A DNA stretch of 64,000 nucleotides from the NCBI GenBank assembly GCA_028753945.1, contig JAPNXP010000010.1, positions 2,793,042 to 2,857,041 on the forward strand. The letters are read 5' to 3'. Source of the DNA: Hexactinellida sp. DTS-2022. Taxonomy: Eukaryota; Porifera; Hexactinellida. Shown one piece after another: positions 1 to 63,715 of the stretch (position 1 is the first letter of the stretch; each line of letters opens with the position of its first letter). The translations under genes and the position numbers were made by a program. The notes beneath the pieces were generated by a model. That model worked only from the letters and a program-made list of their open reading frames with translations. It was not told where the DNA came from and did not search any database.

Positions 1-3000
1 ATTCCGCAGTTCTCCTTGAGTTCATTTGCTACTTTGAATAGTTTTGCTACCTTCTATATAAGCTACAAACATTATTTCAGTAAGTCACTCTTTTTAGCAT
101 TAGTACTATCTGTTATTGTTGTTACCTGGCCATTTCTTGTAACTTTACTAGTTTGTCTACAAGCGAGATATAATCCGCAGATCTCCTTGAGTTCATTTCC
201 TACTTTCAGCAAGGTTTGCTACCTTCTATAAGCTACAAACGTTATTCATTAAGTCACTCTTTTTAGCAATTGTACTAGCTGTTATTGTTTATACTTGGCC
301 ATTTCTTGTAACTTTACTAGATGGTCTACAAGCGAGATTTATTCCGCAGTTCTCCTTGAGTTCATTTGCTACTTTGAGATAGTTTTGCTACCTTCTATAA
401 GCTACAAACGTTATTTATTAAGTCACTCTTTTTAGCACTTGTATTAGCTGTTATTGTTGTTACTTGGCCATTTTGGGAACTTCACTAGTTTGTCTACTAG
501 CGAGATATATTCCGCAGTTCTCCTTGAGTTCATTTGTTACTTTGAGATAAGTTAGCTACCTTTTATATAAGCTACAAACGTTATTTCAGTAAGTCACTCT
601 TTTTAGCACTTGTACTAGCTGTTATTGTTGTTACCTGGCCATTTCTTGTAACTTTACTAGTTGGTCTACAGGCTAGATTTATTCCGCAGTTCTCCTTGAG
701 TTCATTTGCTACTTTCAGCAAGGTTAGCTACCTTTTATATAAGCTACAAACGTTATTTCAGTAAGTCACTCTTTTTAGCACTTGTACTAGCTGTTATTGT
801 TGTTACCTGGCCATTTCTTGTAACTTTACTAGTTGGTCTACAGGCGAGATATATTCCGCAGTTCTCCTTTAGTTCATTTGCTACTTTCAGCAAGGTTTGC
901 TACCTTCTATATTAGCAACCAACGTTATTTCATTTAGACACTCTTTTTACCACTTGTATTAGGTGTTATTGTTGTTACCTGGCCATTTTTGGGAACTTCA
1001 CTAGTTTGTCTACTAGCGAGATATATTCCGCAGTTCTCTTTGAGTTCATTTGTTACTTTGAGATAGTTTTGCTACCTTTTATATAAGCTACAAACATTAT
1101 TTCAGTAAGTCACCTTTTTAGCACTTGTACTATGTGTTATTGTTGTTATATGGCCATTTATAGTAACTTCACTAGTTGGTCTACAAGCGAGATATATTCC
1201 GCAGTTCTCCCTGAGTTCATTTGTTACTTTGAGATAAGTTTGCTACCTTTTATATAAGCTACAAACATTATTTCAGTAAGTCACTCTTTTTACCACTTGT
1301 ACTATGTGTTATTGTTGTTATCTGGCCATTTCTAGTAACTTCACTAGTTGGTCTACAAGCGAGATATATTCCGCAGTTTATCCCTGAGTTCATTTGTTAC
1401 TTTGAGATAGTTTTGCTACCTTTTATATAAGCTACAAACATTATTTCAGTAAGTCACCTTTTTAGCACTTGTACTATGTGTTATTGTTGTTATCTGGCCA
1501 TTTATAGTAACTTCACTAGTTGGTCTGCAAGCTAGATTTATTCCGCAGTTCTCCTTGAGTTCATTTGCTACTTTCAGCAAGGTTTGCTACCTTTTATATA
1601 AGCTACAAACATTATTTCAGTAAGTCACTCTTTTTAGCACTTGTACTAGCTGTTATTGTTGTTATCTGGCCATTTCTTGTAACTTCACTAGTTGGTCTAC
1701 AAGCGAGATATATTCCGCAGTTCTCCTTGAGTTCATTTGTTACTTTGAGATAAGTTTGCTACCTTTTATATAAGCTACAAACATTATTTCAGTAAGTCAC
1801 CTTTTTAGCACTTGTACTATGTGTTATTGTTGTTATCTGGCCATTTATAGTAACTTCACTAGTTGGTCTGCAAGCTAGATTTATTTCCGCAGTTCTCCTT
1901 GAGTTCATTTGTTACTTTGAGATAGTTTTGCTACCTTTTATATAAGCTACAAACATTATTTCAGTAAGTCACCTTTTTAGCACTTGTACTATGTGTTATT
2001 GTTGTTATCTGGCCATTTATAGTAACTTCACTAGTTGGTCTACAAGCGAGATATATTCCGCAGTTCTCCTTGAGTTCATTTGTTACTTTGAGATAGTTTT
2101 GCTACCTTTTATATAAGCTACAAACATTATTTCAGTAAGTCACCTTTTTAGCACTTGTACTATGTGTTATTGTTGTTATCTGGCCATTTATAGTAACTTC
2201 ACTAGTTGGTCTAGAAGCGAGATATATTCCGCAGTTCTCCTTGAGTTCATTTGTTACTTTGAGATAAGTTTGCTACCTTTTATATAAGCTACAAACATTA
2301 TTTCAGTAAGTCACTCTTTTTAGCATTAGTACTATCTGTTATTGTTGTTACCAGGCCATTTCTTGTAACTTTACTACTTGGTCTACAAGCGAGATATATT
2401 CCGCAGTGCTCCCTGAGTTCATTTGCTACTTTGAGATAGTTTTGCTACCTTCTATATAAGCTACTAACATTATTTCAGTAAGTCACCTTTTTAGCACTTG
2501 TACTATGTGTTATTGTTGTTATCTGGCCATTTATAGTAACTTCACTAGTTGGTCTACAAGCGAGATATATTCCGCAGTTCTCCCTGAGTTCATTTGTTAC
2601 TTTGAGATAAGTTTGCTACCTTTTATATAAGCTACAAACATTATTTCAGTAATTTACTCTTTTTAGCACTTGTACTAGCTGTTATTGTTGTTACCTGGCC
2701 ATTTCTAGTAACTTCACTAGTTGGTCTACAAGCGAGATATATTCCGCAGTTTATCCCTGAGTTCATTTGTTACTTTGAGATAGTTTTGCTACCTTTTATA
2801 TAAGCTACAAACATTATTTCAGTAAGTCACCTTTTTAGCACTTGTACTATGTGTTATTGTTGTTATCTGGCCATTTATAGTAACTTCACTAGTTGGTCTG
2901 CAAGCTAGATTTATTCCGCAGTTCTCCTTGAGTTCATTTGCTACTTTCAGCAAGGTTTGCTACCTTTTATATAAGCTACAAACATTATTTCAGTAAGTCA

Positions 3001-9575: not shown

Positions 9576-9744
9576 ATTCCGCAGTTTTCCTTGAGTTCAT
9601 TTGCTACTTTGAGATAGTTTTGCTACCTTCTATAAGCTACAAACGTTATTTATTAAGTCACTCTTTTTAGCACTTGTATTAGCTGTTATTGTTGTTATTT
9701 GGCCATTTCTAGTAACTTTACTAGTTGGTCTACAAGCGAGATTT
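9576..9744 (+). repeat. Exemplar monomer, type A (169 bp)
   Basis: This is the short form of the unit, between two consecutive ATTCCGCAG marks. Its diagnostics are TTCTATAAGCTAC (no second TA), CAAACGTTATTTATTAAG and GTATTAGCTGTTATTG, usually with GCGAGATTTATTCC at the far end. The two-base TA deletion and a one-base deletion at TTTATTAAG (TTTCAGTAAG in type B) make it 3 bp shorter than the long form. Runs of type A occur near 9.4-9.8, 19.2-20.0, 26.0-26.7, 30.4-30.9, 35.1-35.5, 49.2-49.7, 53.4-53.9 and 55.2-55.7 kb. Length and marker bases are read directly; calling it a subfamily is my classification. Confidence 0.9.
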
Positions 9745-37800: not shown

Positions 37801-37930
37801 TTTGCTACCTTCTATATAAGTTACAAACATTATTTCAGTAAGTCACTCTTTTTTTGCATTGGTACTATCTGTTATTGTTGTTACCTGGCCATTTCTTATC
37901 ACTTTACTAGTTTATCTACAAGCGAGATAT
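34856..37930 (+). repeat. Higher-order block 2 (18 units, 3,075 bp)
   Basis: It copies the first part of block 1 at 4,612 bp shift (for example type C at 36,293 and the TTCAGCAGTT unit at 35.53 kb), then jumps near 36.84 kb straight to the ACCAGGCC, GCTAGATTT, CTTATCACTTCAC terminal series. It lacks nine units present in block 1, including the TTTCAGCAAGG unit and the ACAATGTG unit. ACCAAGCC follows type C (about 36.34 kb). TTTTTATATCTTGTATTAGG, where the others read TTTTTACCACTTG, is private. Confidence 0.85.
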
Positions 37931-40900
37931 AATCCGCAGATCTCCTTGAGTTCATTTGCTACTTTCAGCAAGGTTTGCTACCTTCTATAAGCTACAAACG
38001 TTATTCATTAAGTCACTCTTTTTAGCAATTGTACTAGCTGTTATTGTTTATACTTGGCCATTTCTTGTAACTTTACTAGTTGGTCTACAAGCGAGATTTA
38101 TTCCGCAGTTTTCCTTGAGTTCATTTGCTACTTTGAGATAGTTTTGCTACCTTCTATTAGCTACAAACGTTATTTATTAAGTCACTCTTTTTAGCACTTG
38201 TATTAGCTGTTATTGTTGTTATTTGGCCATTTCTAGTAACTTTACTAGTTGGTCTACAAGCGAGATTTATTCCGCAGTTTTCCTTGAGTTCATTTGCTAC
38301 TTTGAGATAGTTTTGCTACCTTCTATAAGCTACAAACGTTATTTATTAAGTCACTCTTTTTAGCACTTGTATTAGCTGTTATTGTTGTTACTTGGCCATT
38401 TCTAGTAACTTTACTAGTTGGTCTACAAGCGGATTATATTCAGCAGTTCTCCTTGAGTTCATTTGCTACTTTCAGCAAGGTTTGCTACCTTTTATATAAG
38501 CTACAAACATTATTTCAGTAAGTCACTCTTTTTAGCACTTGTACTAGCTGTTATTGTTGTTACCAGGCCATTTCTTGTAACTTTACTACTAGGTCTACAA
38601 GCGAGATATATTCCGCAGTTCTCCTTGAGTTTATTTGCTACTTTGAGATAGTTTTGCTACCTTTTATATAAGCTACAAACATTATTTCAGTAAGTCACCA
38701 TTTTAGCACTTGTATTAGCTGTTATTGTTGTTACCTGGCCATTTCTGGGAACTTCACTAGTTTCTCTACAAGCGAGATATATTCCGCAGTTCTCCTTGAG
38801 TTCATTTGCTACTTTGAGATAGTTTTGCTACCTTCTATAAGCTACAAACGTTATTTATTAAGTATCTCTTTTTGGCACTTGTATTAGCTGTTATTGTTGT
38901 TACCTGGCCATTTCTGGGAACTTCACTAGTTTCTCTACAAGCGAGATATATTCCGCAGTTCTCCTTGAGTTTATTTGCTACTTTGAGATAGTTTTGCTAC
39001 CTTTTATATAAGCTACAAACATTATTTCAGTAATTCACCATTTTAGCACTTGTACTATGTGTTATTGTTGTTATCTGGCCATTTCATGTAACTTTACTAG
39101 TTGGTCTACAGGCGAGATATATTCCGCAGTTCTTCTTTAGTTCATTTGCTACTTTCAGCAAGGTTTGCTACCTTCTATATTAGCATCCAACGTTATTTCA
39201 TTTAGACACTCTTTTTACCACTTGTATTAGGTGTTATTGTTGTTACCAAGCCATTTCTAGTAACTTCACTAGTTTGTCTACTAGCGAGATATATTCCGCA
39301 GTTCTCCTTGAGTTCATTTGTTACTTTGAGATAGTTTTGCTACCTTTTATATAAGCTACAAACATTATTTCAGTAAGTCACCTTTTTAGCACTTGTACTA
39401 TGTGTTATTGTTGTTATCTGGCCATTTATAGTAACTTCACTAGTTGGTCTAGAAGCGAGATATATTCCGCAGTTCTCCTTGAGTTCATTTGTTACTTTGA
39501 GATAAGTTTGCTACCTTTTATATAAGCTACAAACATTATTTCAGTAAGTCACTCTTTTTAGCACTTGTACTATGTGTTATTGTTGTTATCTGGCCATTTA
39601 TAGTAACTTCACTAGTTGGTCTGCAAGCGAGATATATTCCGCAGTTCTCCCTGAGTTCATTTGTTACTTTGAGATAAGTTTGCTACCTTTTATATAAGCT
39701 ACAAACATTATTTCAGTAAGTCACTCTTTTTAGCATTAGTACTATCTGTTATTGTTGTTATCTGGCCATTTCTTGTAACTTTACTACTTGGTCTACAAGC
39801 GAGATATATTCCGCAGTTCTCCCTGAGTTCATTTGCTACTTTGAGATAGTTTTGCTACCTTCTATATAAGCTACAAACATTATTTCAGTAAGTCACTCTT
39901 TTTAGCATTAGTACTATCTGTTATTGTTGTTACCTGGCCATTTCTTGTAACTTTACTAGTTGGTCTACAAGCTAGATTTATTCCGCAGTTCTCCTTGAGT
40001 TCATTTGCTACTTTCAGCAAGGTTTGCTACCTTCTATAAGCTACAAACGTTATTTATTAAGTCACTCTTTTTGGCACTTGTATTAGCTGTTATTGTTGTT
40101 ACCTGGCCATTTCTTATCACTTCACTAGTTTCTCTACAAGCGAGATATATTCCGCAGTTCTCCTTGAGTTCATTTGTTACTTTGAGATAGTTTTGCTACC
40201 TTTTATATAAGCTACAAACATTATTTCAGTAAGTCACCTTTTTAGCACTTGTACTATGTGTTATTGTTGTTATCTGGCCATTTATAGTAACTTCACTAGT
40301 TGGTCTACAAGCGAGATATATTCCGCAGTTCTCCCTGAGTTCATTTGTTACTTTGAGATAAGTTTTGCTACCTTTTATATAAGCTACAAACATTATTTCA
40401 GTAAGTCACCTTTTTAGCACTTGTACTATGTGTTATTGTTGTTATCTGGCCATTTATAGTAACTTCACTAGTTGGTCTACAAGCGAGATATATTCCGCAG
40501 TTTTCCCTGAGTTCATTTGTTACTTTGAGATAAGTTTGCTACATTTTATATAAGCTACAAACATTATTTCAGTAAGTCACTCTTTTTAGCACTTGTACTA
40601 TGTGTTATTGTTGTTATCTGGCCATTTATAGTAACTTCACTAGTTGGTCTACAAGCGAGATATATTCCGCAGTTCTCCCTGAGTTCATTTGTTACTTTGA
40701 GATAAGTTTGCTACCTTTTATATAAGCTACAAACATTATTTCAGTAAGTCACTCTTTTTAGCATTAGTACTATCTGTTATTGTTGTTACCAGGCCATTTC
40801 TTGTAACTTTACTACTTGGTCTACAAGCGAGATATATTCCGCAGTTCTCCCTGAGTTCATTTGCTACTTTGAGATAGTTTTGCTACCTTCTATATAAGTT

Positions 40901-41008
40901 ACAAACATTATTTCAGTAAGTCACTCTTTTTTTGCATTGGTACTATCTGTTATTGTTGTTACCTGGCCATTTCTTATCACTTTACTAGTTTATCTACAAG
41001 CGAGATAT
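37931..41008 (+). repeat. Higher-order block 3 (18 units, 3,078 bp)
   Basis: Same marks as blocks 1, 2 and 4, but all features after the first unit come 169 bp earlier than in blocks 1 and 4 (type C mark at offset 1,268 rather than 1,437). The missing piece is one type A unit: the type D unit here is followed directly by the CTTCTATTAGCTAC unit, without the TTTATTAATTCAC unit. It keeps the TTTCAGCAAGG unit (about 40.0 kb) lacking in block 2, then joins the terminal series directly. ACCAAGCC follows type C. Confidence 0.85.
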
Positions 41009-41177
41009 AATCCGCAGATCTCCTTGAGTTCATTTGCTACTTTCAGCAAGGTTTGCTACCTTCTATAAGCTACAAACGTTATTCATTAAGTCACTCTTTT
41101 TAGCAATTGTACTAGCTGTTATTGTTTATACTTGGCCATTTCTTGTAACTTTACTAGTTGGTCTACAAGCGAGATTT
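41009..41177 (+). repeat. Exemplar monomer, type D (169 bp), block-start marker
   Basis: This variant begins AATCCGCAGATCTCC (creating AGATCT) and carries TTTCAGCAAGGTTTGC, CGTTATTCATTAAG, AGCAATTGTACTAG and TTATTGTTTATACTTGG. Copies start near 7,532 (altered head), 9,238, 25,127, 30,244, 34,856, 37,931, 41,009, 45,112, 49,049 and 55,029 (head replaced); related units lie near 170 and 4,109. I use its start as the boundary of the 30-49 kb blocks. Because CAGCAAGG replaces the GAGATAG stop-bearing phrase, each copy yields the same 61-codon TTG-initiated open frame, which I regard as non-coding. Confidence 0.85.
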
Positions 41178-44100
41178 ATTCCGCAGTTCTCCTTGAGTTC
41201 ATTTGCTACTTTGAGATAGTTTTGCTTCCTTCTATAAGCTACAAACGTTATTTATTAATTCACTCTTTTTAGCACTTGTATTAGCTGTTATTGTTGTTAC
41301 TTGGCCATTTCTAGTAACTTTACTAGTTGGTCTACAAGCGAGATTTATTCCGCAGTTTTCCTTGAGTTCATTTGCTACTTTGAGATAGTTTTGCTACCTT
41401 CTATTAGCTACAAACGTTATTTATTAAGTCACTCTTTTTAGCACTTGTATTAGCTGTTATTGTTGTTATTTGGCCATTTCTAGTAACTTTACTAGTTGGT
41501 CTACAAGCGAGATTTATTCCGCAGTTTTCCTTGAGTTCATTTGCTACTTTGAGATAGTTTTGCTACCTTCTATAAGCTACAAACGTTATTTATTAAGTCA
41601 CTCTTTTTAGCACTTGTATTAGCTGTTATTGTTGTTACTTGGCCATTTCTAGTAACTTTACTAGTTGGTCTACAAGCGGATTATATTCAGCAGTTCTCCT
41701 TGAGTTCATTTGCTACTTTCAGCAAGGTTTGCTACCTTTTATATAAGCTACAAACATTATTTCAGTAAGTCACTCTTTTTAGCACTTGTACTAGCTGTTA
41801 TTGTTGTTACCAGGCCATTTCTTGTAACTTTACTACTAGGTCTACAAGCGAGATATATTCCGCAGTTCTCCTTGAGTTTATTTGCTACTTTGAGATAGTT
41901 TTGCTACCTTTTATATAAGCTACAAACATTATTTCAGTAAGTCACCATTTTAGCACTTGTATTAGCTGTTATTGTTGTTACCTGGCCATTTCTGGGAACT
42001 TCACTAGTTTCTCTACAAGCGAGATATATTCCGCAGTTCTCCTTGAGTTCATTTGCTACTTTGAGATAGTTTTGCTACCTTCTATAAGCTACAAACGTTA
42101 TTTATTAAGTATCTCTTTTTGGCACTTGTATTAGCTGTTATTGTTGTTACCTGGCCATTTCTGGGAACTTCACTAGTTTCTCTACAAGCGAGATATATTC
42201 CGCAGTTCTCCTTGAGTTTATTTGCTACTTTGAGATAGTTTTGCTACCTTTTATATAAGCTACAAACATTATTTCAGTAATTCACCATTTTAGCACTTGT
42301 ACTATGTGTTATTGTTGTTATCTGGCCATTTCATGTAACTTTACTAGTTGGTCTACAGGCGAGATATATTCCGCAGTTCTTCTTTAGTTCATTTGCTACT
42401 TTCAGCAAGGTTTGCTACCTTCTATATTAGCATCCAACGTTATTTCATTTAGACACTCTTTTTACCACTTGTATTAGGTGTTATTGTTGTTACCAAGCCA
42501 TTTCTAGTAACTTCACTAGTTTGTCTACTAGCGAGATATATTCCGCAGTTCTCCTTGAGTTCATTTGTTACTTTGAGATAGTTTTGCTACCTTTTATATA
42601 AGCTACAAACATTATTTCAGTAAGTCACCTTTTTAGCACTTGTACTATGTGTTATTGTTGTTATCTGGCCATTTATAGTAACTTCACTAGTTGGTCTAGA
42701 AGCGAGATATATTCCGCAGTTCTCCTTGAGTTCATTTGTTACTTTGAGATAAGTTTGCTACCTTTTATATAAGCTACAAACATTATTTCAGTAAGTCACT
42801 CTTTTTAGCACTTGTACTATGTGTTATTGTTGTTATCTGGCCATTTATAGTAACTTCACTAGTTGGTCTGCAAGCGAGATATATTCCGCAGTTCTCCCTG
42901 AGTTCATTTGTTACTTTGAGATAAGTTTGCTACCTTTTATATAAGCTACAAACATTATTTCAGTAAGTCACTCTTTTTAGCATTAGTACTATCTGTTATT
43001 GTTGTTATCTGGCCATTTCTTGTAACTTTACTACTTGGTCTACAAGCGAGATATATTCCGCAGTTCTCCCTGAGTTCATTTGCTACTTTGAGATAGTTTT
43101 GCTACCTTCTATATAAGCTACAAACATTATTTCAGTAAGTCACTCTTTTTAGCATTAGTACTATCTGTTATTGTTGTTACCTGGCCATTTCTTGTAACTT
43201 TACTAGTTGGTCTACAAGCTAGATTTATTCCGCAGTTCTCCTTGAGTTCATTTGCTACTTTCAGCAAGGTTTGCTACCTTCTATAAGCTACAAACGTTAT
43301 TTATTAAGTCACTCTTTTTGGCACTTGTATTAGCTGTTATTGTTGTTACCTGGCCATTTCTGGGAACTTCACTAGTTTCTCTACAAGCGAGATATATTCC
43401 GCAGTTCTCCTTGAGTTCATTTGCTACTTTGAGATAGTTTTGCTACCTTTTATATAAGCTACAAACATTATTTCAGTAAGTCACCATTTTAGCACTTGTA
43501 CAATGTGTTATTGTTGTTATCTGGCCATTTATAGTAACTTCACTAGTTGGTCTGCAAGCGAGATATATTCCGCAGTTCTCCCTGAGTTCATTTGTTACTT
43601 TGAGATAAGTTTGCTACCTTTTATATAAGCTACAAACATTATTTCAGTAAGTCACTCTTTTTAGCATTAGTACTATCTGTTATTGTTGTTATCTGGCCAT
43701 TTCTTGTAACTTTACTACTTGGTCTACAAGCGAGATATATTCCGCAGTTCTCCCTGAGTTCATTTGCTACTTTGAGATAGTTTTGCTACCTTCTATATAA
43801 GCTACAAACATTATTTCAGTAAGTCACTCTTTTTAACATTAGTACTATCTGTTATTGTTGTTACCAGGCCATTTCTTGTAACTTTACTAGTTGGTCTACA
43901 AGCTAGATTTATTCCGCAGTTCTCCTTGAGTTCATTTGCTACTTTGAGATAGTTTTGCTACCTTCTATAAGCTACAAACGTTATTTATTAAGTCACTCTT
44001 TTTGGCACTTGTATTAGCTGTTATTGTTGTTACCTGGCCATTTCTTATCACTTCACTAGTTTCTCTACAAGCGAGATATATTCCGCAGTTCTCCTTGAGT

Positions 44101-45111
44101 TCATTTGTTACTTTGAGATAGTTTTGCTACCTTTTATATAAGCTACAAACATTATTTCAGTAAGTCACCTTTTTAGCACTTGTACTATGTGTTATTGTTG
44201 TTATCTGGCCATTTATAGTAACTTCACTAGTTGGTCTACAAGCGAGATATATTCCGCAGTTCTCCCTGAGTTCATTTGTTACTTTGAGATAAGTTTGCTA
44301 CCTTTTATATAAGCTACAAACATTATTTCAGTAAGTCACTCTTTTTAGCATTTGTACTAGCTGTTATTGTTGCTACCTGGCCTTTTCTAGTAACTTCACT
44401 AGTTGGTCTACAAGCGAGATATATTCCGCAGTTTATCCCTGAGTTCATTTGTTACTTTGAGATAGTTTTGCTACCTTTTATATAAGCTACAAACATTATT
44501 TCAGTAAGTCACCTTTTTAGCACTTGTACTATGTGTTATTGTTGTTATCTGGCCATTTATAGTAACTTCACTAGTTGGTCTACAAGCGAGATATATTCCG
44601 CAGTTTTCCCTGAGTTCATTTGTTACTTTGAGATAAGTTTGCTACATTTTATATAAGCTACAAACATTATTTCAGTAAGTCACTCTTTTTAGCACTTGTA
44701 CTATGTGTTATTGTTGTTATCTGGCCATTTATAGTAACTTCACTAGTTGGTCTACAAGCGAGATATATTCCGCAGTTCTCCCTGAGTTCATTTGTTACTT
44801 TGAGATAAGTTTGCTACCTTTTATATAAGCTACAAACATTATTTCAGTAAGTCACTCTTTTTAGCATTAGTACTATCTGTTATTGTTGTTACCAGGCCAT
44901 TTCTTGTAACTTTACTACTTGGTCTACAAGCGAGATATATTCCGCAGTTCTCCCTGAGTTCATTTGCTACTTTGAGATAGTTTTGCTACCTTCTATATAA
45001 GTTACAAACATTATTTCAGTAAGTCACTCTTTTTTTGCATTGGTACTATCTGTTATTGTTGTTACCTGGCCATTTCTTATCACTTTACTAGTTTGTCTAC
45101 AAGCGAGATAT
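41009..45111 (+). repeat. Higher-order block 4 (24 units, 4,103 bp)
   Basis: It matches block 1 in having the full early part: TTCAGCAGTT unit (about 41.69 kb), type C (42,446), TTTCAGCAAGG unit (43.2 kb) and ACAATGTG (about 43.50 kb, 10,765 bp after the block 1 copy). It has ACCAAGCC after type C, as blocks 2 and 3 do. The internal four-unit repeat of block 1 is present once. The extra-T unit is replaced by one with GCATTTGTACTAG and TTGTTGCTACC (44.37 kb). GGCCTTTTCTAG (44.38 kb) and TTTTTAACATTAG (43.83 kb) are private. Confidence 0.85.
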
Positions 45112-47332
45112 AATCCGCAGATCTCCTTGAGTTCATTTGCTACTTTCAGCAAGGTTTGCTACCTTCTATAAGCTACAAACGTTATTCATTAAGTCACTCT
45201 TTTTAGCAATTGTACTAGCTGTTATTGTTTATACTTGGCCATTTCTTGTAACTTTACTAGTTGGTCTACAAGCGAGATTTATTCCGCAGTTCTCCTTGAG
45301 TTCATTTGCTACTTTGAGATAGTTTTGCTACCTTCTATAAGCTACAAACGTTATTTATTAATTCACTCTTTTTAGCACTTGTATTAGCTGTTATTGTTGT
45401 TACTTGGCCATTTCTAGTAACTTTACTAGTTGGTCTACAAGCGAGATTTATTCCGCAGTTTTCCTTGAGTTCATTTGCTACTTTGAGATAGTTTTGCTAC
45501 CTTCTATTAGCTACAAACGTTATTTATTAAGTCACTCTTTTTAGCACTTGTATTAGCTGTTATTGTTGTTATTTGGCCATTTCTAGTAACTTTACTAGTT
45601 GGTCTACAAGCGAGATTTATTCCGCAGTTTTCCTTGAGTTCATTTGCTACTTTGAGATAGTTTTGCTACCTTCTATAAGCTACAAACGTTATTTATTAAG
45701 TCACTCTTTTTAGCACTTGTATTAGCTGTTATTGTTGTTACTTGGCCATTTCTGGGAACTTCACTAGTTTGTCTACTAGCGAGATATATTCCGCAGTTTA
45801 TCCCTGAGTTCATTTGTTACTTTGAGATAGTTTTGCTACCTTTTATATAAGCTACAAACATTATTTCAGTAAGTCACCTTTTTAGCACTTGTACTATGTG
45901 TTATTGTTGTTATCTGGCCATTTATAGTAACTTCACTAGTTGGTCTGCAAGCGAGATATATTCCGCAGTTCTCCCTGAGTTCATTTGTTACTTTGAGATA
46001 AGTTTGCTACCTTTTATATAAGCTACAAACATTATTTCAGTAAGTCACTCTTTTTAGCATTAGTACTATCTGTTATTGTTGTTACCAGGCCATTTCTTGT
46101 AACTTTACTAGTTGGTCTACAAGCTAGATTTATTCCGCAGTTCTCCTTGAGTTCATTTGCTACTTTGAGATAGTTTTGCTACCTTCTATAAGCTACAAAC
46201 GTTATTTATTAAGTCACTCTTTTTGGCACTTGTATTAGCTGTTATTGTTGTTACCTGGCCATTTCTTATCACTTCACTAGTTTCTCTACAAGCGAGATAT
46301 ATTCCGCAGTTCTCCTTGAGTTCATTTGTTACTTTGAGATAGTTTTGCTACCTTTTATATAAGCTACAAACATTATTTCAGTAAGTCACCTTTTTAGCAC
46401 TTGTACTATGTGTTATTGTTGTTATCTGGCCATTTATAGTAACTTCACTAGTTGGTCTACAAGCGAGATATATTCCGCAGTTCTCCCTGAGTTCATTTGT
46501 TACTTTGAGATAAGTTTGCTACCTTTTATATAAGCTACAAACATTATTTCAGTAAGTCACTCTTTTTAGCATTTGTACTAGCTGTTATTGTTGCTACCTG
46601 GCCATTTCTAGTAACTTCACTAGTTGGTCTACAAGCGAGATATATTCCGCAGTTTATCCCTGAGTTCATTTGTTACTTTGAGATAGTTTTGCTACCTTTT
46701 ATATAAGCTACAAACATTATTTCAGTAAGTCACCTTTTTAGCACTTGTACTATGTGTTATTGTTGTTATCTGGCCATTTATAGTAACTTCACTAGTTGGT
46801 CTACAAGCGAGATATATTCCGCAGTTTTCCCTGAGTTCATTTGTTACTTTGAGATAAGTTTGCTACATTTTATATAAGCTACAAACATTATTTCAGTAAG
46901 TCACTCTTTTTAGCACTTGTACTATGTGTTATTGTTGTTATCTGGCCATTTATAGTAACTTCACTAGTTGGTCTACAAGCGAGATATATTCCGCAGTTCT
47001 CCCTGAGTTCATTTGTTACTTTGAGATAAGTTTGCTACCTTTTATATAAGCTACAAACATTATTTCAGTAAGTCACTCTTTTTAGCATTAGTACTATCTG
47101 TTATTGTTGTTACCAGGCCATTTCTTGTAACTTTACTACTTGGTCTACAAGCGAGATATATTCCGCAGTTCTCCCTGAGTTCATTTGCTACTTTGAGATA
47201 GTTTTGCTACCTTCTATATAAGTTACAAACATTATTTCAGTAAGTCACTCTTTTTTTGCATTGGTACTATCTGTTATTGTTGTTACCTGGCCATTTCTTA
47301 TCACTTCACTAGTTTCTCTACAAGCGAGATAT
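45112..47332 (+). repeat. Higher-order block 5 (13 units, 2,221 bp)
   Basis: It starts with the type D and type A run, then at about 45.75 kb switches to a CTAGTTTGTCTACTAGCG end (the type C type of end) without a type C unit, and continues into the terminal series. The TTGTTGCTACC mark (46,592) lies 2,221 bp after that of block 4 (44,371). The block ends in the TTTTTTTGCATTGG unit, but that unit finishes CTTATCACTTCACTAGTTTC instead of leading to type D, so the junction is recombinant. Confidence 0.8.
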
Positions 47333-49048
47333 ATTCCGCAGTTCTCCTTGAGTTCATTTGTTACTTTGAGATAGTTTTGCTACCTTTTATATAAGCTACA
47401 AACATTATTTCAGTAATTCACCATTTTAGCACTTGTACTATGTGTTATTGTTGTTATCTGGCCATTTATAGTAACTTCACTAGTTTGTCTACTAGCGAGA
47501 TATATTCCGCAGTTTATCCCTGAGTTCATTTGTTACTTTGAGATAGTTTTGCTACCTTTTATATAAGCTACAAACATTATTTCAGTAAGTCACCTTTTTA
47601 GCACTTGTACTATGTGTTATTGTTGTTATCTGGCCATTTATAGTAACTTCACTAGTTGGTCTGCAAGCGAGATATATTCCGCAGTTCTCCCTGAGTTCAT
47701 TTGTTACTTTGAGATAAGTTTGCTACCTTTTATATAAGCTACAAACATTATTTCAGTAAGTCACTCTTTTTAGCATTAGTACTATCTGTTATTGTTGTTA
47801 CCAGGCCATTTCTTGTAACTTTACTAGTTGGTCTACAAGCTAGATTTATTCCGCAGTTCTCCTTGAGTTCATTTGCTACTTTGAGATAGTTTTGCTACCT
47901 TCTATAAGCTACAAACGTTATTTATTAAGTCACTCTTTTTGGCACTTGTATTAGCTGTTATTGTTGTTACCTGGCCATTTCTTATCACTTCACTAGTTTC
48001 TCTACAAGCGAGATATATTCCGCAGTTCTCCTTGAGTTCATTTGTTACTTTGAGATAGTTTTGCTACCTTTTATATAAGCTACAAACATTATTTCAGTAA
48101 GTCACCTTTTTAGCACTTGTACTATGTGTTATTGTTGTTATCTGGCCATTTATAGTAACTTCACTAGTTGGTCTACAAGCGAGATATATTCCGCAGTTCT
48201 CCCTGAGTTCATTTGTTACTTTGAGATAAGTTTGCTACCTTTTATATAAGCTACAAACATTATTTCAGTAAGTCACTCTTTTTAGCATTTGTACTAGCTG
48301 TTATTGTTGCTACCTGGCCATTTCTAGTAACTTCACTAGTTGGTCTACAAGCGAGATATATTCCGCAGTTTATCCCTGAGTTCATTTGTTACTTTGAGAT
48401 AGTTTTGCTACCTTTTATATAAGCTACAAACATTATTTCAGTAAGTCACCTTTTTAGCACTTGTACTATGTGTTATTGTTGTTATCTGGCCATTTATAGT
48501 AACTTCACTAGTTGGTCTACAAGCGAGATATATTCCGCAGTTTTCCCTGAGTTCATTTGTTACTTTGAGATAAGTTTGCTACATTTTATATAAGCTACAA
48601 ACATTATTTCAGTAAGTCACTCTTTTTAGCACTTGTACTATGTGTTATTGTTGTTATCTGGCCATTTATAGTAACTTCACTAGTTGGTCTACAAGCGAGA
48701 TATATTCCGCAGTTCTCCCTGAGTTCATTTGTTACTTTGAGATAAGTTTGCTACCTTTTATATAAGCTACAAACATTATTTCAGTAAGTCACTCTTTTTA
48801 GCATTAGTACTATCTGTTATTGTTGTTACCAGGCCATTTCTTGTAACTTTACTACTTGGTCTACAAGCGAGATATATTCCGCAGTTCTCCCTGAGTTCAT
48901 TTGCTACTTTGAGATAGTTTTGCTACCTTCTATATAAGTTACAAACATTATTTCAGTAAGTCACTCTTTTTTTGCATTGGTACTATCTGTTATTGTTGTT
49001 ACCTGGCCATTTCTTATCACTTTACTAGTTTGTCTACAAGCGGGATAT
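47333..49048 (+). repeat. Higher-order block 6 (10 units, 1,716 bp), start lost
   Basis: It repeats only the terminal series of block 5, at a shift of 1,716 bp (TTGTTGCTACC at 46,592 and 48,308). The type D and type A head is absent; instead an AATTCACCATTTTAGC unit leads into it. The next type D unit, at 49,049, lies 3,937 bp from that at 45,112, which equals 2,221 + 1,716. TAACGCT-type changes are not seen; the only obvious change in the following D unit is CGGGATATAATCC. Confidence 0.78.
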
Positions 49049-51120
49049 AATCCGCAGATCTCCTTGAGTTCATTTGCTACTTTCAGCAAGGTTTGCTACC
49101 TTCTATAAGCTACAAACGTTATTCATTAAGTCACTCTTTTTAGCAATTGTACTAGCTGTTATTGTTTATACTTGGCCATTTCTTGTAACTTTACTAGTTG
49201 GTCTACAAGCGAGATTTATTCCGCAGTTCTCCTTGAGTTCATTTGCTACTTTGAGATAGTTTTGCTACCTTCTATAAGCTACAAACGTTATTTATTAATT
49301 CACTCTTTTTAGCACTTGTATTAGCTGTTATTGTTGTTACTTGGCCATTTCTAGTAACTTTACTAGTTGGTCTACAAGCGAGATTTATTCCGCAGTTTTC
49401 CTTGAGTTCATTTGCTACTTTGAGATAGTTTTGCTACCTTCTATTAGCTACAAACGTTATTTATTAAGTCACTCTTTTTAGCACTTGTATTAGCTGTTAT
49501 TGTTGTTATTTGGCCATTTCTAGTAACTTTACTAGTTGGTCTACAAGCGAGATTTATTCCGCAGTTTTCCTTGAGTTCATTTGCTACTTTGAGATAGTTT
49601 TGCTACCTTCTATAAGCTACAAACGTTATTTATTAAGTCACTCTTTTTAGCACTTGTATTAGCTGTTATTGTTGTTACTTGGCCATTTCTGGGAACTTCA
49701 CTAGTTTCTCTACAAGCGAGATATATTCCGCAGTTCTCCTTGAGTTCATTTGCTACTTTGAGATAGTTTTGCTACCTTTTATATAAGCTACAAACATTAT
49801 TTCAGTAATTCACCATTTTAGCACTTGTACTATGTGTTATTGTTGTTATCTGGCCATTTCATGTAACTTTACTAGTTGGTCTAAAGGCGAGATATATTCC
49901 GCAGTTCTTCTTTAGTTCATTTGCTACTTTCAGCAAGGTTTGCTACCTTCTATATTAGCATCCAACGTTATTTCATTTAGACACTCTTTTTACCACTTGT
50001 ATTAGGTGTTATTGTTGTTACCTGGCCATTTCTAGTATCTTCACTAGTTTGTCTACTAGCGAGATATATTCCGCAGTTTATCCCTGAGTTCATTTGTTAC
50101 TTTGAGATAGTTTTGCTACCTTTTATATAAGCTACAAACATTATTTCAGAAAGTCACCTTTTTAGCACTTGTACTATGTGTTATTGTTGTTATCTGGCCA
50201 TTTATAGTAACTTCACTAGTTGGTCTGCAAGCGAGATATATTCCGCACTTCTCCCTGAGTTCATTTGTTACTTTGAGATAAGTTTGCTACCTTTTATATA
50301 AGCTACAAACATTATTTCAGTAAGTCACTCTTTTTAGCATTAGTACTATCTGTTATTGTTGTTACCAGGCCATTTCTTGTAACTTTACTACTTGGTCTAC
50401 AAGCGAGATATATTCCGCAGTTCTCCCTGAGTTCATTTGCTACTTTGAGATAGTTTTGCTACATTCTATATAAGCTACAAACATTATTTCAGTAAGTCAC
50501 TCTTTTTAGCACTTGTACTATCTGTTATTGTTGTTATCTGGCCATTTCTTGTAACTTTACTAGTTGGTCTACAAGCTAGATCTATTCCGCAGTTCTCCTT
50601 GAGTTCATTTGCTACTTTGAGATAGTTTTGCTACCTTCTATAAGCTACAAACTTTATTTATTAAGTCACTCTTTTTGGCACTTGTATTAGCTGTTATTGT
50701 TGTTACCTGGCCATTTCTTATCACTTCACTAGTTTCTCTACAAGCGAGATATATTCCGCAGTTCTCCTTGAGTTCATTTGTTACTTTGAGATAGTTTTGC
50801 TACCTTTTATATAAGCTACAAACATTATTTCAGTAAGTCACTCTTTTTAGCACTTGTACTATGTGTTATTGTTGTTACCTGGCCATTTCTTGTAACTTTA
50901 CTAGTTGGTCTACAAGCGGATTATATTCCGCTGTTCTCCTTGAGTTCATTTGCTACTTTGAGATAGTTTTGCTACCTTTTATATAAGCTACAAACATTAT
51001 TTCAGTAAGTCACTCTTTTTAGCACTTGTACTATCTGTTATTGTTGTTACCTGGCCATTTCTTGTAACTTTACTAGTTGGTCTACAAGCGAGATTTATTC
51101 CGCAGTTTTCCTTGAGTTCA
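49049..51120 (+). repeat. Ten-unit segment, copy 1
   Basis: It runs type D, three or so type A units, an AATTCACC unit, type C (49,974), a unit with TTTCAGAAAGTCACC (50,145), a unit with ATTCCGCACTTC, then GCTAGATCTATTCC, AAACTTTATTTATTAAG and GCGGATTATATTCCGCTG (about 50.92 kb). The whole stretch recurs at 55,029 with a shift of 5,980 bp (35 units), and the match ends near 51.12/57.10 kb. It reads AAGCTACAAAC before AATTCACC and ATTCCGCAG near 50.75 kb, where copies 2 and 3 have changed bases. Confidence 0.82.
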
Positions 51121-52520
51121 TTTGCTACTTTGAGATAGTTTTGCTACCTTCTATAAGCTACAAACGTTATTTATTAAGTATCTCTTTTTGGCACTTGTAT
51201 TAGCTGTTATTGTTGTTACCTGGCCATTTCTGGGAACTTCACTAGTTTCTCTACAAGCGAGATATATTCCGCAGTTCTCCTTGAGTTTATTTGCTACTTT
51301 GAGATAGTTTTGCTACCTTTTATATAAGCTACAAACATTATTTCAGTAATTCACCATTTTAGCACTTGTACTATGTGTTATTGTTGTTATCTGGCCATTT
51401 CATGTAACTTTACTAGTTGGTCTACAGGCGAGATATATTCCGCACTTCTTCTTTAGTTCATTTGCTACTTTCAGCAAGGTTTGCTACCTTCTATATTAGC
51501 ATCCAACGTTATTTCATTTAGACACTCTTTTTACCACTTGTATTAGGTGTTAATGTTGTTACCTGGCCATTTCTAGTAACTTCACTAGTTTGTCTACTAG
51601 CGAGATATATTCCGCAGTTCTCCCTGAGTTCATTTGTTACTTTGAGATAGTTTTGCTACCTTTTATATAAGCTACAAACATTATTTCAGTAAGTCACCTT
51701 TTTAGCACTTGTACTATGTGTTATTGTTGTTATCTGGCCATTTATAGTAACTTCACTAGTTGGTCTAGAAGCGAGATATATTCCGCAGTTCTCCTTGAGT
51801 TCATTTGTTACTTTGAGATAAGTTTGCTACCTTTTATATAAGCTACAAACATTATTTCAGTAAGTCACTCTTTTTAGCACTTGTACTATGTGTTATTGTT
51901 GTTATCTGGCCATTTATAGTAACTTCACTAGTTGGTCTGCAAGCGAGATATATTCCGCAGTTCTCCCTGAGTTCATTTGTTACTTTGAGATAAGTTTGCT
52001 ACCTTTTATATAAGCTACAAACATTATTTCAGTAAGTCACTCTTTTTAGCACTTGTACTATCTGTTATTGTTGTTATCTGGCCATTTCTTGTAACTTTAC
52101 TAGTTGGTCTACAAGCTAGATATATTCCGCAGTTCTCCTTGAGTTCATTTGCTACTTTGAGATAGTTTTGCTACCTTCTATAAGCTACAAACTTTATTTT
52201 TTAAGTCACTCTTTTTGGCACTTGTATTAGCTGTTATTGTTGTTACCTGGCCATTTCTTATCACTTCACTAGTTTCTCTACAAGCGAGATATATTCCGCA
52301 GTTCTCCTTGAGTTCATTTGTTACTTTGAGATAGTTTTGCTACCTTTTATATAAGCTACAAACATTATTTCAGTAAGTCACTCTTTTTAGCACTTGTACT
52401 ATGTGTTATTGTTGTTACCTGGCCATTTCTTGTAACTTTACTAGTTGGTCTACAAGCGAGATTTATTCCGCAGTTTTCCTTGAGTTCATTTGCTACTTTG
52501 AGATAGTTTTGCTACCTTTT
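51120..52520 (+). repeat. Eight-unit segment shared with the 57.6-63.2 kb blocks
   Basis: Marks: AAGTATCTCTTTTTGG, an AATTCACCATTTT unit, type C (51,515), GGTCTAGAAGCG, AAACTTTATTTTTTAAG (52,191). They recur 6,833 bp (40 units) downstream at 58.0-59.35 kb, and again 2,732 bp further. ATTCCGCACTTCTTC and GTGTTAATGTTG (51.44 and 51.55 kb) are private. The match stops near 52.52 kb, where a CACCTTTTTAGCACTTGTAA unit follows. Confidence 0.8.
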
Positions 52521-53493
52521 ATATAAGCTACAAACATTATTTCAGTAAGTCACCTTTTTAGCACTTGTAATATGTGTTATTGTTGTTATCTGGCCATTTA
52601 TAGTAACTTCACTAGTTGGTCTACAAGCGAGATATATTCCGCAGTTTTCCCAGAGTTCATTTGTTACTTTGAGATAAGTTTGCTACATTTTATATAAGCT
52701 ACAAACATTATTTCAGTAAGTCACTCTTTTTAGCACTTGTACTATGTGTTATTGTTGTTATCTGGCCATTTATAGTAACTTCACTAGTTGGTCTACAAGC
52801 GAGATATATTCCGCAGTTCTCCCTGAGTTCATTTGTTACTTTGAGATAAGTTTGCTACCTTTTATATAAGCTACAAACATTATTTCAGTAAGTCACTCTT
52901 TTTAGCATTAGTACTATCTGTTATTGTTGTTACCAGGCCATTTCTTGTAACTTTACTACTTGGTCTACAAGCGAGATATATTCCGCAGTTCTCCCTGAGT
53001 TCATTTGCTACTTTGAGATAGTTTTGCTACCTTCTATATAAGTTACAAACATTATTTCAGTAAGTCACTCTTTTTTTGCATTGGTACTATCTGTTATTGT
53101 TGTTACCTGGCCATTTCTTATCACTTTACTAGTTTGTCTACAAGCGAGATATAATCCGCAGATCTCCTTGAGTTCATTTGCTACTTTGAGATAGTTTTGC
53201 TACATTCTATATAAGCTACAAACATTATTTCAGTAAGTCACTCTTTTTAGCACTTGTACTATCTGTTATTGTTGTTATCTGGCCATTTCTTGTAACTTTA
53301 CTAGTTGGTCTACAAGCTAGATCTATTCCGCAGTTCTCCTTGAGTTCATTTGCTACTTTGAGATAGTTTTGCTACCTTCTATAAGCTACAAACGTTATTT
53401 ATTAATTCACTCTTTTTAGCACTTGTATTAGCTGTTATTGTTGTTACTTGGCCATTTCTAGTAACTTTACTAGTTGGTCTACAAGCGAGATTT
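52520..53493 (+). repeat. Junction segment with terminal-series units of the 30-49 kb family
   Basis: This is satellite only. The order CACCTTTTTAGC, TTTGCTACATTTTATATAAG, ACCAGGCC, TTTTTTTGCATTGG and a CAGATCTCC start copies the end of blocks 1-6, but the expected type D unit is replaced at about 53.19 kb by a unit with TTTGAGATAGTTTTGCTAC and ATTCTATATAAG that belongs to the ten-unit segment. TTTTCCCAGAGTTC (52.65 kb) and ACTTGTAATATG (52.56 kb) are private. Confidence 0.7.
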
Positions 53494-55053
53494 ATTCCGC
53501 AGTTCTCCTTGAGTTCATTTGCTACTTTGAGATAGTTTTGCTACCTTCTATAAGCTACAAACGTTATTTATTAATTCACTCTTTTTAGCACTTGTATTAG
53601 CTGTTATTGTTGTTACTTGGCCATTTCTAGTAACTTTACTAGTTGGTCTACAAGCGAGATTTATTCCGCAGTTTTCCTTGAGTTCATTTGCTACTTTGAG
53701 ATAGTTTTGCTACCTTCTATTAGCTACAAACGTTATTTATTAAGTCACTCTTTTTAGCACTTGTATTAGCTGTTATTGTTGTTATTTGGCCATTTCTAGT
53801 AACTTTACTAGTTGGTCTACAAGCGAGATTTATTCCGCAGTTTTCCTTGAGTTCATTTGCTACTTTGAGATAGTTTTGCTACCTTCTATAAGCTACAAAC
53901 GTTATTTATTAAGTCACTCTTTTTAGCACTTGTATTAGCTGTTATTGTTGTTACTTGGCCATTTCTGGGAACTTCACTAGTTTCTCTACAAGCGAGATAT
54001 ATTCCGCAGTTCTCCTTGAGTTCATTTGCTACTTTGAGATAGTTTTGCTACCTTTTATATAAGCTATAAACATTATTTCAGTAATTCACCATTTTAGCAC
54101 TTGTACTATGTGTTATTGTTGTTATCTGGCCATTTCATGTAACTTTACTAGTTGGTCTAAAGGCGAGATATATTCCGCAGTTCTTCTTTAGTTCATTTGC
54201 TACTTTCAGCAAGGTTTGCTACCTTCTATATTAGCATCCAACGTTATTTCATTTAGACACTCTTTTTACCACTTGTATTAGGTGTTATTGTTGTTACCTG
54301 GCCATTTCTAGTATCTTCACTAGTTTGTCTACTAGCGAGATATATTCCGCAGTTTATCCCTGAGTTCATTTGTTACTTTGAGATAGTTTTGCTACCTTTT
54401 ATATAAGCTACAAACATTATTTCAGAAAGTCACCTTTTTAGCACTTGTACTATGTGTTATTGTTGTTATCTGGCCATTTATAGTAACTTCACTAGTTGGT
54501 CTGCAAGCGAGATATATTCCGCACTTCTCCCTGAGTTCATTTGTTACTTTGAGATAAGTTTGCTACCTTTTATATAAGCTACAAACATTATTTCAGTAAG
54601 TCACTCTTTTTAGCATTAGTACTATCTGTTATTGTTGTTACCAGGCCATTTCTTGTAACTTTACTACTTGGTCTACAAGCGAGATATATTCCGCAGTTCT
54701 CCCTGAGTTCATTTGCTACTTTGAGATAGTTTTGCTACATTCTATATAAGCTACAAACATTATTTCAGTAAGTCACTCTTTTTAGCACTTGTACTATCTG
54801 TTATTGTTGTTATCTGGCCATTTCTTGTAACTTTACTAGTTGGTCTACAAGCTAGATCTATTCCGCAGTTCTCCTTGAGTTCATTTGCTACTTTGAGATA
54901 GTTTTGCTACCTTCTATAAGCTACAAACTTTATTTATTAAGTCACTCTTTTTGGCACTTGTATTAGCTGTTATTGTTGTTACCTGGCCATTTCTTATCAC
55001 TTCACTAGTTTCTCTACAAGCGAGATATATTCCACAGTTCTCCTTGAGTTCAT
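53494..55053 (+). repeat. Ten-unit segment, copy 2
   Basis: It matches copy 1 at a shift of 4,276 bp (25 units) and copy 3 at 1,704 bp (10 units). Marks: TTTCAGAAAGTCACC at 54,421, type C at 54,250, ATTCCACAG near 55.03 kb. It shares AAGCTATAAAC (54.06 kb) and ATTCCACAG with copy 3 but not copy 1, so copies 2 and 3 are the closer pair. It starts with type A (no type D). Confidence 0.82.
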
Positions 55054-57100
55054 TTGCTACTTTCAGCAAGGTTTGCTACCTTCTATAAGCTACAAACGTT
55101 ATTCATTAAGTCACTCTTTTTAGCAATTGTACTAGCTGTTATTGTTTATACTTGGCCATTTCTTGTAACTTTACTAGTTGGTCTACAAGCGAGATTTATT
55201 CCGCAGTTCTCCTTGAGTTCATTTGCTACTTTGAGATAGTTTTGCTACCTTCTATAAGCTACAAACGTTATTTATTAATTCACTCTTTTTAGCACTTGTA
55301 TTAGCTGTTATTGTTGTTACTTGGCCATTTCTAGTAACTTTACTAGTTGGTCTACAAGCGAGATTTATTCCGCAGTTTTCCTTGAGTTCATTTGCTACTT
55401 TGAGATAGTTTTGCTACCTTCTATTAGCTACAAACGTTATTTATTAAGTCACTCTTTTTAGCACTTGTATTAGCTGTTATTGTTGTTATTTGGCCATTTC
55501 TAGTAACTTTACTAGTTGGTCTACAAGCGAGATTTATTCCGCAGTTTTCCTTGAGTTCATTTGCTACTTTGAGATAGTTTTGCTACCTTCTATAAGCTAC
55601 AAACGTTATTTATTAAGTCACTCTTTTTAGCACTTGTATTAGCTGTTATTGTTGTTACTTGGCCATTTCTGGGAACTTCACTAGTTTCTCTACAAGCGAG
55701 ATATATTCCGCAGTTCTCCTTGAGTTCATTTGCTACTTTGAGATAGTTTTGCTACCTTTTATATAAGCTATAAACATTATTTCAGTAATTCACCATTTTA
55801 GCACTTGTACTATGTGTTATTGTTGTTATCTGGCCATTTCATGTAACTTTACTAGTTGGTCTAAAGGCGAGATATATTCCGCAGTTCTTCTTTAGTTCAT
55901 TTGCTACTTTCAGCAAGGTTTGCTACCTTCTATATTAGCATCCAACGTTATTTCATTTAGACACTCTTTTTACCACTTGTATTAGGTGTTATTGTTGTTA
56001 CCTGGCCATTTCTAGTATCTTCACTAGTTTGTCTACTAGCGAGATATATTCCGCAGTTTATCCCTGAGTTCATTTGTTACTTTGAGATAGTTTTGCTACC
56101 TTTTATATAAGCTACAAACATTATTTCAGAAAGTCACCTTTTTAGCACTTGTACTATGTGTTATTGTTGTTATCTGGCCATTTATAGTAACTTCACTAGT
56201 TGGTCTGCAAGCGAGATATATTCCGCACTTCTCCCTGAGTTCATTTGTTACTTTGAGATAAGTTTGCTACCTTTTATATAAGCTACAAACATTATTTCAG
56301 TAAGTCACTCTTTTTAGCATTAGTACTATCTGTTATTGTTGTTACCAGGCCATTTCTTGTAACTTTACTACTTGGTCTACAAGCGAGATATATTCCGCAG
56401 TTCTCCCTGAGTTCATTTGCTACTTTGAGATAGTTTTGCTACATTCTATATAAGCTACAAACATTATTTCAGTAAGTCACTCTTTTTAGCACTTGTACTA
56501 TCTGTTATTGTTGTTATCTGGCCATTTCTTGTAACTTTACTAGTTGGTCTACAAGCTAGATCTATTCCGCAGTTCTCCTTGAGTTCATTTGCTACTTTGA
56601 GATAGTTTTGCTACCTTCTATAAGCTACAAACTTTATTTATTAAGTCACTCTTTTTGGCACTTGTATTAGCTGTTATTGTTGTTACCTGGCCATTTCTTA
56701 TCACTTCACTAGTTTCTCTACAAGCGAGATATATTCCACAGTTCTCCTTGAGTTCATTTGTTACTTTGAGATAGTTTTGCTACCTTTTATATAAGCTACA
56801 AACATTATTTCAGTAAGTCACTCTTTTTAGCACTTGTACTATGTGTTATTGTTGTTACCTGGCCATTTCTTGTAACTTTACTAGTTGGTCTACAAGCGGA
56901 TTATATTCCGCTGTTCTCCTTGAGTTCATTTGCTACTTTGAGATAGTTTTGCTACCTTTTATATAAGCTACAAACATTATTTCAGTAAGTCACTCTTTTT
57001 AGCACTTGTACTATCTGTTATTGTTGTTACCTGGCCATTTCTTGTAACTTTACTAGTTGGTCTACAAGCGAGATTTATTCCGCAGTTTTCCTTGAGTTCA
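55029..57100 (+). repeat. Ten-unit segment, copy 3
   Basis: It begins at the unit containing ATTCCACAG and TTTCAGCAAGG, which is the type D body with its head replaced by the end of copy 2. Marks recur from copy 1 at 5,980 bp (GCGGATTATATTCCGCTG at about 56.90 kb) and from copy 2 at 1,704 bp (TTTCAGAAAG at 56,125, type C at 55,954). The hybrid first unit shows the crossover point of the tandem duplication lies inside one unit. Confidence 0.82.
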
Positions 57101-57586
57101 TTTGCTACTTTGAGATAGTTTTGCTACCTTTTATATAAGCTACAAACATTATTTACTAAGTCACTCTTTTTATCACTTGTACTAGCTGTTATTGTTGTTA
57201 TCTGTGCATTTCTTGTAACTTCACTAGTTGGTCTACAAGCGAGATTTATTCCGCAGTTTTCCTTGAGTTCATTTGCTACTTTGAGATAGTTTTGCTACCT
57301 TCTATAAGCGACAAACATTAGTTCAGTAAGTCACTCTTTTTAGCACTTGTACTATCTGTTATTGTTGTTACCTGGCCATTTCTTGTAACTTTACTAGTTC
57401 GTCTACAAGCTAGATTTATTCCGCAGTTCTCCTTGAGTTCATTTGCTACTTTGAGATAGTTTTGCTACCTTCTATAAGCTACAAACGTTATTTACTAAGT
57501 CACTCTTTTTAGCACTTGTATTAGCTGTTATTGTTCTTACCTGGCCATTTCTTGTAACTTTACTAGTTGGTCTACAAGCGGGATAT
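57100..57586 (+). repeat. Three-unit lead-in with TTTACTAAG units
   Basis: The units carry CATTATTTACTAAGTC, TTATCTGTGCATTTC (TGGCCA lost), AAGCGACAAACATTAG, CTAGTTCGTCTAC and TTATTGTTCTTACC. They are the same kinds of unit that end the two blocks that follow (59.37-60.3 and 62.28-63.2 kb), but here the middle units of that series are missing, giving a shortened version. Confidence 0.75.
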
Positions 57587-63222: not shown

Positions 63223-63715
63223 ATTCCGCAGTTCTCCTTGGGTTCTTTTGCTACTTTGAGATAGTTTTTCTATCTTTTATATAAGCTACAAACATTATTT
63301 CAGTAAGTCACTCTTTTTAGCACTTGTACTATGTGTTATTGTTGTTATCTGGCCATTTATAGTAACTTCACTAGTTGGTCTACAAGCGAGATATATTCCG
63401 CAGTTCTCCTTTTGTACATTTTCTACTTTCAGCAAGGTTTACTACCTTCTATAAGCTACTAACGTTATTTCATTAAGTCACTCTTTTTAGCACTTGTACT
63501 AGCTGTTATTGTTGTTTACCTGGCCATTTCTTGTAACTTCACTAGTTTGTCTACAAGCGAGATATATTCCGCAGTTCTTCTAAATTCATCTATTACTTTG
63601 TGATTAATTTGCTACCTTTTATCTAAACTACAGAAGTTTATCTAGTGAGTGACACTTTATAGCACTTGTACTAACTGTTATTCTTTTTCTACCTTTCCAT
63701 TTATTGTTTACTTTC
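63223..63715 (+). repeat. Degenerate edge of the array
   Basis: Units starting 63,223 and 63,395 keep the phase but carry many private changes: GGGTTCTTTTGC, TTTTTCTATC, CTTTTGTACATTTTC, GGTTTACTACC, GCTACTAACG. The last unit, from 63,566, is worse: CTAAATTCATCTATTAC, TGTGATTAATTTGC, TATCTAAACTACAG, AGTGAGTGACACTTTATAGC, TTATTCTTTTTCTACC. Recognisable homology ends with CATTTATTGTTTACTTT at about 63,715 (give or take 20 bp). Divergence rising toward the boundary is usual at satellite edges, where exchange no longer homogenises copies. Confidence 0.88.

What the first reader, a model, noticed from the sequence alone, without database searches (positions are those of the whole stretch)
1..63715. 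Large, uninterrupted, apparently unfamiliar ~171-bp satellite: candidate centromeric array
About 370 units in one orientation with no transposon, inversion or gene. Nucleosome-scale unit length and nested higher-order repeats are the usual features of centromeric satellites. I do not recognise the sequence. Centromere identity is inferred.
Basis: partly seen in the sequence, partly recalled or inferred. Interest (0 to 1): 0.7.

Follow-up and report, generated by a model that had tools for sequence, protein, structure and literature searches.

The report
Satellite array in a duplicated block
The window is almost entirely one 171-base DNA repeat copied hundreds of times in a small genome, probably an animal's; large arrays of it were found on only two of the 18 assembled pieces, inside a block shared by both, so it looks like an ordinary satellite and not a repeat common to all centromeres.

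Summary
In detail: window 1-63706 is one head-to-tail ~171-bp satellite in one orientation, without insertion or gene. It is the right-hand 81% of a 78.3-kb array (C2:2778444-2856747, 458 monomers) in a 112-Mb, 18-contig genome. The nested repeats are real but irregular: local blocks, no fixed higher-order period. The centromere reading is weakened. In two whole-genome pattern counts every forward-strand match lies inside this array. The reverse-strand counts are about what one other large array (C11, ~71.6 kb) and a 14-unit relic give, so no further large array is indicated on the other 16 contigs. The C2 and C11 arrays sit in one shared block of at least ~103 kb with flanks 96-100% identical. 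It includes a Mutator-like transposase gene on one side and short cofilin-type and ubiquitin-like ORFs on the other. The arrays inside are not collinear where compared (about 33.8 of 71.6 kb of C11), and monomers group by array: array turnover outran flank divergence. Divergent units occur at the array edge, in the relic and in a ~1.6-unit remnant on C14. Best reading: a locally amplified satellite shared by interchromosomal duplication. A centromere of C2 and C11 alone is not excluded.

The parts
1..63706 (+). Right-hand 81% of the ~171-bp satellite array (whole array C2:2778444-2856747; begins 14,598 bases before the window)
33146..57076 (+). Most homogeneous part of the array (monomers 280-419): 75-100% of monomers per 20-monomer bin have an identical partner in the array, against 10% in the outermost left bin; the outermost right bin is still at 78%
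63564..63706 (+). Last, divergent edge unit: 119 of 138 aligned columns match the relic-array consensus, 113 of 143 match the main consensus
63707..64000 (.). Start of the non-satellite right flank; window 63650-64000 is 97% identical to C11:10577650-10577998

Best explanation
A non-coding satellite array. A degenerate ~171-bp unit already present in a larger dispersed repeat was amplified by unequal exchange and local block duplication into arrays of more than 400 units. The array and both flanks are shared by two chromosomes as one interchromosomal segmental duplication of at least ~103 kb. Since then each array has been rebuilt by its own recombination, so monomers resemble those of their own array while the flanks still match at 96-100%. 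Shown: the array, the shared flanks, two large arrays plus a relic, non-collinearity in the parts compared, irregular block duplication, a divergent edge unit. Inferred: unequal exchange as the mechanism, the order of events, and the absence of a function common to all chromosomes.
For: Forward-strand genome counts equal the counts inside the C2 array exactly (448 = 448 and 426 = 426), reversed-pattern controls 0. Flanks: 98.8% over 5,452 columns on the left, 98.1% over 2,606 on the right, 96-100% in further pieces. The reported left match ends at C2:2767931. In about 33.8 kb of the C11 array (178 monomers) the longest stretch shared with C2 in order at >=95.5% is 3 monomers and none is identical (in one search, with 139 monomers, no run of 5 and none identical), while C2 alone has 584 identical pairs. 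Nearest neighbour in the same array: 449 of 458 C2 monomers (6 ties) and 165 of 178 C11 monomers (8 ties). Relic of 14 hits at C11:2874684-2876979, consensus 83% identical to the main one. C14 remnant of ~1.6 units, E 2.6e-13 and 7.5e-11, 78 bp before a segment homologous to DNA right of the array.
Against: About half of the C11 array was not compared. At the right edge the outermost ~260 bp of array are still collinear with C2 within a 98.1% match. The two consensus sequences differ at only 3 of 172 columns, with majority bases at 51-72%, so the arrays are not separate subfamilies. The C2 nearest-neighbour count is favoured by the larger C2 sample. The right edge is not older by the identical-partner measure. 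The direction and date of the duplication are unknown. The assembly was not checked with reads. The homogeneous interior also fits a centromere core.
Confidence: 0.72

Rival explanations
1. The array is the centromere of C2 and, through the duplication, of C11; other chromosomes use unrelated sequences.
For: One large array on each of two contigs at internal positions (44% and 68% along; contig lengths); AT-rich (65-66%), nucleosome-scale unit, one orientation, most homogeneous inside with a divergent outermost unit. An array of 70-80 kb could suit a 112-Mb genome (inference).
Against: No further large array indicated on the other 16 contigs; no fixed HOR; no CENP-B-box match (not required in most animals, recalled); ORFs of cellular type 12 and 32 kb away. 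Whether this organism has localised centromeres is unknown, and tandem arrays of other families on other contigs were not surveyed.
Confidence: 0.17
2. The satellite is the internal tandem repeat of a giant Mutator-type mobile element that moved between C2 and C11.
For: A Mutator-like transposase (PF20700, E 1.8e-61) lies ~2.8 kb upstream of the C2 array and its homologue beside the C11 array; the block holds ORFs that may be copied gene pieces; C14 has a transposase copy and right-flank homology in the same order and orientation.
Against: The transposase is a dispersed family: of the listed places over 2 kb outside C2, 20 in number, 15 are on C11 and only one adjoins a large array. In the C11 block its reading frame is split into three open pieces. 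No inverted or direct repeat was found between the left end of the block and the C2 DNA held right of it; the right end was not reached.
Confidence: 0.07
3. The C2/C11 sharing is an assembly artefact or a heterozygous rearrangement counted twice.
For: Near-identical flanks on two contigs; no reads available.
Against: Flank pieces differ by 0-4%, by an extra 5.9 kb in C11 and an extra 1.1-kb dispersed repeat in C2; the C11 array holds a ~0.9-kb dispersed repeat that C2 lacks; the left match ends.
Confidence: 0.04

Closest known systems
Satellite DNA with array-specific homogenisation (concerted evolution), in general (recalled)
   Same: Long head-to-tail array, AT-rich ~171-bp unit, local block duplications, divergent unit at the edge
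   Different: Large arrays found at two loci of one shared block only, about 150 kb of 112.4 Mb (0.13%), not spread over all chromosomes
Primate alpha satellite (recalled)
   Same: Unit length near 171 bp, one orientation, block duplications
   Different: No CENP-B box, no regular HOR, large arrays on two contigs only; its letters were not aligned here
Cg_HINE Helentron elements of Crassostrea gigas with satDNA-like central repeats (PMC7492417; abstract and outline seen)
   Same: Satellite-like repeats in a repeat-rich context with shared flanking DNA
   Different: Here the neighbour is a Mutator-like transposase, the array has hundreds of units, and no mobile element containing the array was delimited

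Membership tests
Satellite DNA | Long array of head-to-tail, non-coding units | tested here: met
   458 monomers, spacing 168-173 bp, one strand; no credible coding ORF
Centromeric satellite | Present on all or most chromosomes, usually the most abundant tandem repeat (working assumption of PMC4053949, passages seen) | tested here: not met
   Large arrays on 2 of 18 contigs. Whether another repeat is more abundant was not tested, and chromosome-specific centromeres would escape this test
Centromeric satellite | CENP-A/CENH3 occupancy | not testable with these tools
   no chromatin data
Centromeric satellite | Regular higher-order repeat (in some taxa only) | tested here: not met
   no dominant lag over 1-60 monomers; irregular blocks only
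Alpha-satellite-like with CENP-B box | CENP-B box TTCGNNNNANNCGGG (motif recalled) | tested here: not met
   0 matches on either strand of the C2 array
Mutator-type transposon carrying the array | Transposase inside the moving unit | tested here: inconclusive
   PF20700 ORF in the shared block, but the family is dispersed on its own elsewhere
Mutator-type transposon carrying the array | Terminal inverted repeats and target-site duplication at the ends of the block | tested here: inconclusive
   none found between the left end and the C2 DNA held on the right, but the right end was not reached

The most novel reading that the evidence does not exclude
Chromosome-specific centromere seeding: a satellite that serves as centromere on one chromosome was copied with its flanks to a second chromosome and rebuilt there, while the other 16 chromosomes use unrelated sequences.
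Probability: 0.12. Interest if true: 0.55.

Novelty: new member of a known kind. Interest (0 to 1): 0.27.

Why it matters
Two arrays of common origin sit between flanks that still match at 96-100%, so flank divergence gives a clock for satellite turnover: in the parts compared the arrays have lost collinearity while the flanks changed by 0-4%. The divergent edge unit, the relic and the C14 remnant suggest how a satellite can start from a unit in a larger repeat. It also warns against calling a centromere from unit length and array size alone.

Tried and rejected
Phage records: no match to window 1-2400. Viral contigs: 0 exact matches to a 25-base word. Rfam: 0 matches. tRNA: 0. COX1 family search for a mitochondrial contig: 0. 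Naming the species by assembly size and chromosome number in the literature gave nothing that fits (search listings only, listing 30 of 44). S6 kinase and proteasome beta-3 ORFs match PDB entries of those names best (the tables name no organisms), so only 'probably an animal' is claimed, by inference. Two further literature searches were seen as listings only, apart from the two papers named in this report. A C14 array between the transposase copy and the right-flank copy was suspected; the 1.7 kb read there holds only a ~1.6-unit remnant. A periodic HOR was looked for and not found. Two places with the 570-bp pre-array segment (C5:1367191, C12:910866) could not be read to see whether satellite follows.

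Full report
Observation. The window is C2:2793042-2857041 of a 112.4-Mb, 18-contig genome. TRF reports one array over window 1-63682, period 172, 372.7 copies; a consensus search gives 373 hits, all on the + strand, to 63706. The whole array runs from C2:2778444 to 2856747, 78.3 kb and 458 monomers, all spaced 168-173 bp. G+C is 34-35% in every 2-kb bin. There is no Rfam or tRNA match and no credible coding ORF. ORFs near by (S6K1-like kinase, proteasome beta-3) suggest an animal; the species was not identified.

Internal structure. Mean pairwise identity of the 458 monomers is 0.901; 251 are distinct. 65 runs of at least 6 consecutive monomers are repeated at >=96% identity, the longest 25 monomers at 99.7%; of 20 shuffles of the monomer order 19 gave none and one gave 1. 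Lags differ from block to block, and mean identity is 0.896-0.913 across lags 1-60. So the array grew by irregular block duplication, not by a fixed higher-order repeat. In bins of 20 monomers the share with an identical partner is 0.10 at the left edge, 0.20-0.75 in bins 20-239, 0.80-1.00 in bins 240-379 and 0.70-0.90 in the remaining right-hand bins; the gradient is thus one-sided. The last unit before the right flank matches the relic consensus (119 of 138 columns) better than the main consensus (113 of 143).

Where else it occurs. A 25-base pattern with up to 3 mismatches matched 448 times forward and 397 times reverse genome-wide; a 32-base pattern matched 426 and 378; reversed-pattern controls were 0. 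The C2 array alone gives 448 and 426 forward and 0 reverse, so no forward match lies outside it. The listed reverse places are all on C11, but each search lists only its first 100 places. Three pieces of the C11 array with 141 consensus hits gave 140 and 124 pattern hits. Scaled to about 414 units, and with 3 and 7 for the relic, that predicts about 414 and 371 against 397 and 378 seen: no room for another large array, though a few scattered reverse-strand copies are not excluded. An earlier unit search listed 77 matches, all on C11, but scored only 6 of 10 candidates. A diverged array of 14 hits lies at C11:2874684-2876979, and a pattern made for it matched 5 places, all there. Patterns miss more diverged relatives: the C14 remnant was met only by reading the DNA.

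Duplicated block. The left flank of the C2 array matches the high-coordinate side of the C11 array at 98.8% over 5,452 columns and at 99% further out to C2:2767931 / C11:10660064, where the reported match ends. The other flank matches at 98.1% over 2,606 columns, then in pieces at 96-100% to at least C2:2872341 / C11:10557488. The C11 side has an extra 5.9 kb, the C2 side an extra 1.1-kb dispersed repeat. Thus at least 104.4 kb of C2 corresponds to 102.6 kb of C11, arrays included. The C11 array contains a ~0.9-kb dispersed repeat near 10619748-10620658 (another copy, 91% identical, is in L046) that C2 lacks. On the left the C2 block carries an 832-codon Mutator-like transposase ORF (PF20700, E 1.8e-61; PHD finger below its cut-off); the C11 homologue is split into three open pieces. 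Outside C2, 20 places over 2 kb of this family are listed, 15 of them on C11 (40 of 2,513 candidates scored). On the right the block holds a cofilin/ADF-type ORF, 12 kb from the array, and a ubiquitin-like ORF; outside it a proteasome beta-3 ORF lies 32 kb left of the array.

Turnover. In about 33.8 of 71.6 kb of the C11 array (178 monomers) the longest stretch shared with C2 in order at >=95.5% is 3 monomers and no monomer is identical, while C2 alone has 584 identical pairs. The C11 pieces have their own internal runs of >=6 monomers (3 and 4, up to 11 and 16 monomers). Nearest neighbours lie in the same array for 449 of 458 C2 monomers (6 ties) and 165 of 178 C11 monomers (8 ties); the C2 figure is helped by the larger C2 sample. 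Against full independence: the two consensus sequences differ at only 3 of 172 columns, and the outermost ~260 bp at the right edge are still collinear. The simplest account is that an array was copied with its flanks and both copies were then reshuffled by local recombination faster than the flanks diverged.

Origin. On C14, four copies of a segment homologous to DNA right of the array are spaced 5.0-6.5 kb apart. Some 78 bp before the first of them, in reading direction, lie ~1.6 degenerate satellite units, E 2.6e-13 and 7.5e-11. Weak half-unit matches (E 0.0086) lie in both copies of a repeat flanking the C2 array. This suggests, without proving it, that the satellite grew from a unit inside a larger dispersed repeat.

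Centromere question. For: nucleosome-scale unit, uniform orientation, homogeneous interior, internal position on both contigs. Against: no further large array indicated on 16 of 18 contigs, irregular structure, cellular-type ORFs near by, and a shared location explained by duplication. [quoted passage not shown] I put it at 0.17.

Limits. No reads or chromatin data were available.

Noticed in passing
C11 (G000), about 2.6-11.8 Mb: Mutator-like transposase copies are concentrated on C11: 15 of the 20 listed places over 2 kb outside C2 (capped list); many matches to other dispersed repeats also fall between about 2.6 and 10.9 Mb of C11. This may be a repeat-rich or sex chromosome.
   Followed up: no
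L032 from 5350 (C2:2872391 on): A ~2.8-kb minisatellite right of the part of the block that was traced is open in all three forward frames (935 to 939 codons).
   Followed up: no
C14:3200416-3219276: Four copies of a right-flank segment in the same orientation, spaced about 5.0, 6.3 and 6.5 kb; C11:3588111 and 3593907 show a similar pair.
   Followed up: partly
L046:1430-2863, L037:2898-3515: S6K1-like kinase (478 codons) and proteasome beta-3 (206 codons) are each a single uninterrupted ORF, unusual for an animal (recalled) and perhaps a sign of an intron-poor genome.
   Followed up: no
L038:423-2555 (C2:2733464-2735596): A 711-codon ORF with a weak match to the RAG1 recombinase family (PF12940, E 2.8e-7), perhaps a RAG-like or related transposase.
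   Followed up: no
C5:1367191-1367768 and C12:910866-911437: The 570-bp segment that precedes the array on C2 and C11 also occurs here at 93%; whether satellite units follow was not read.
   Followed up: partly
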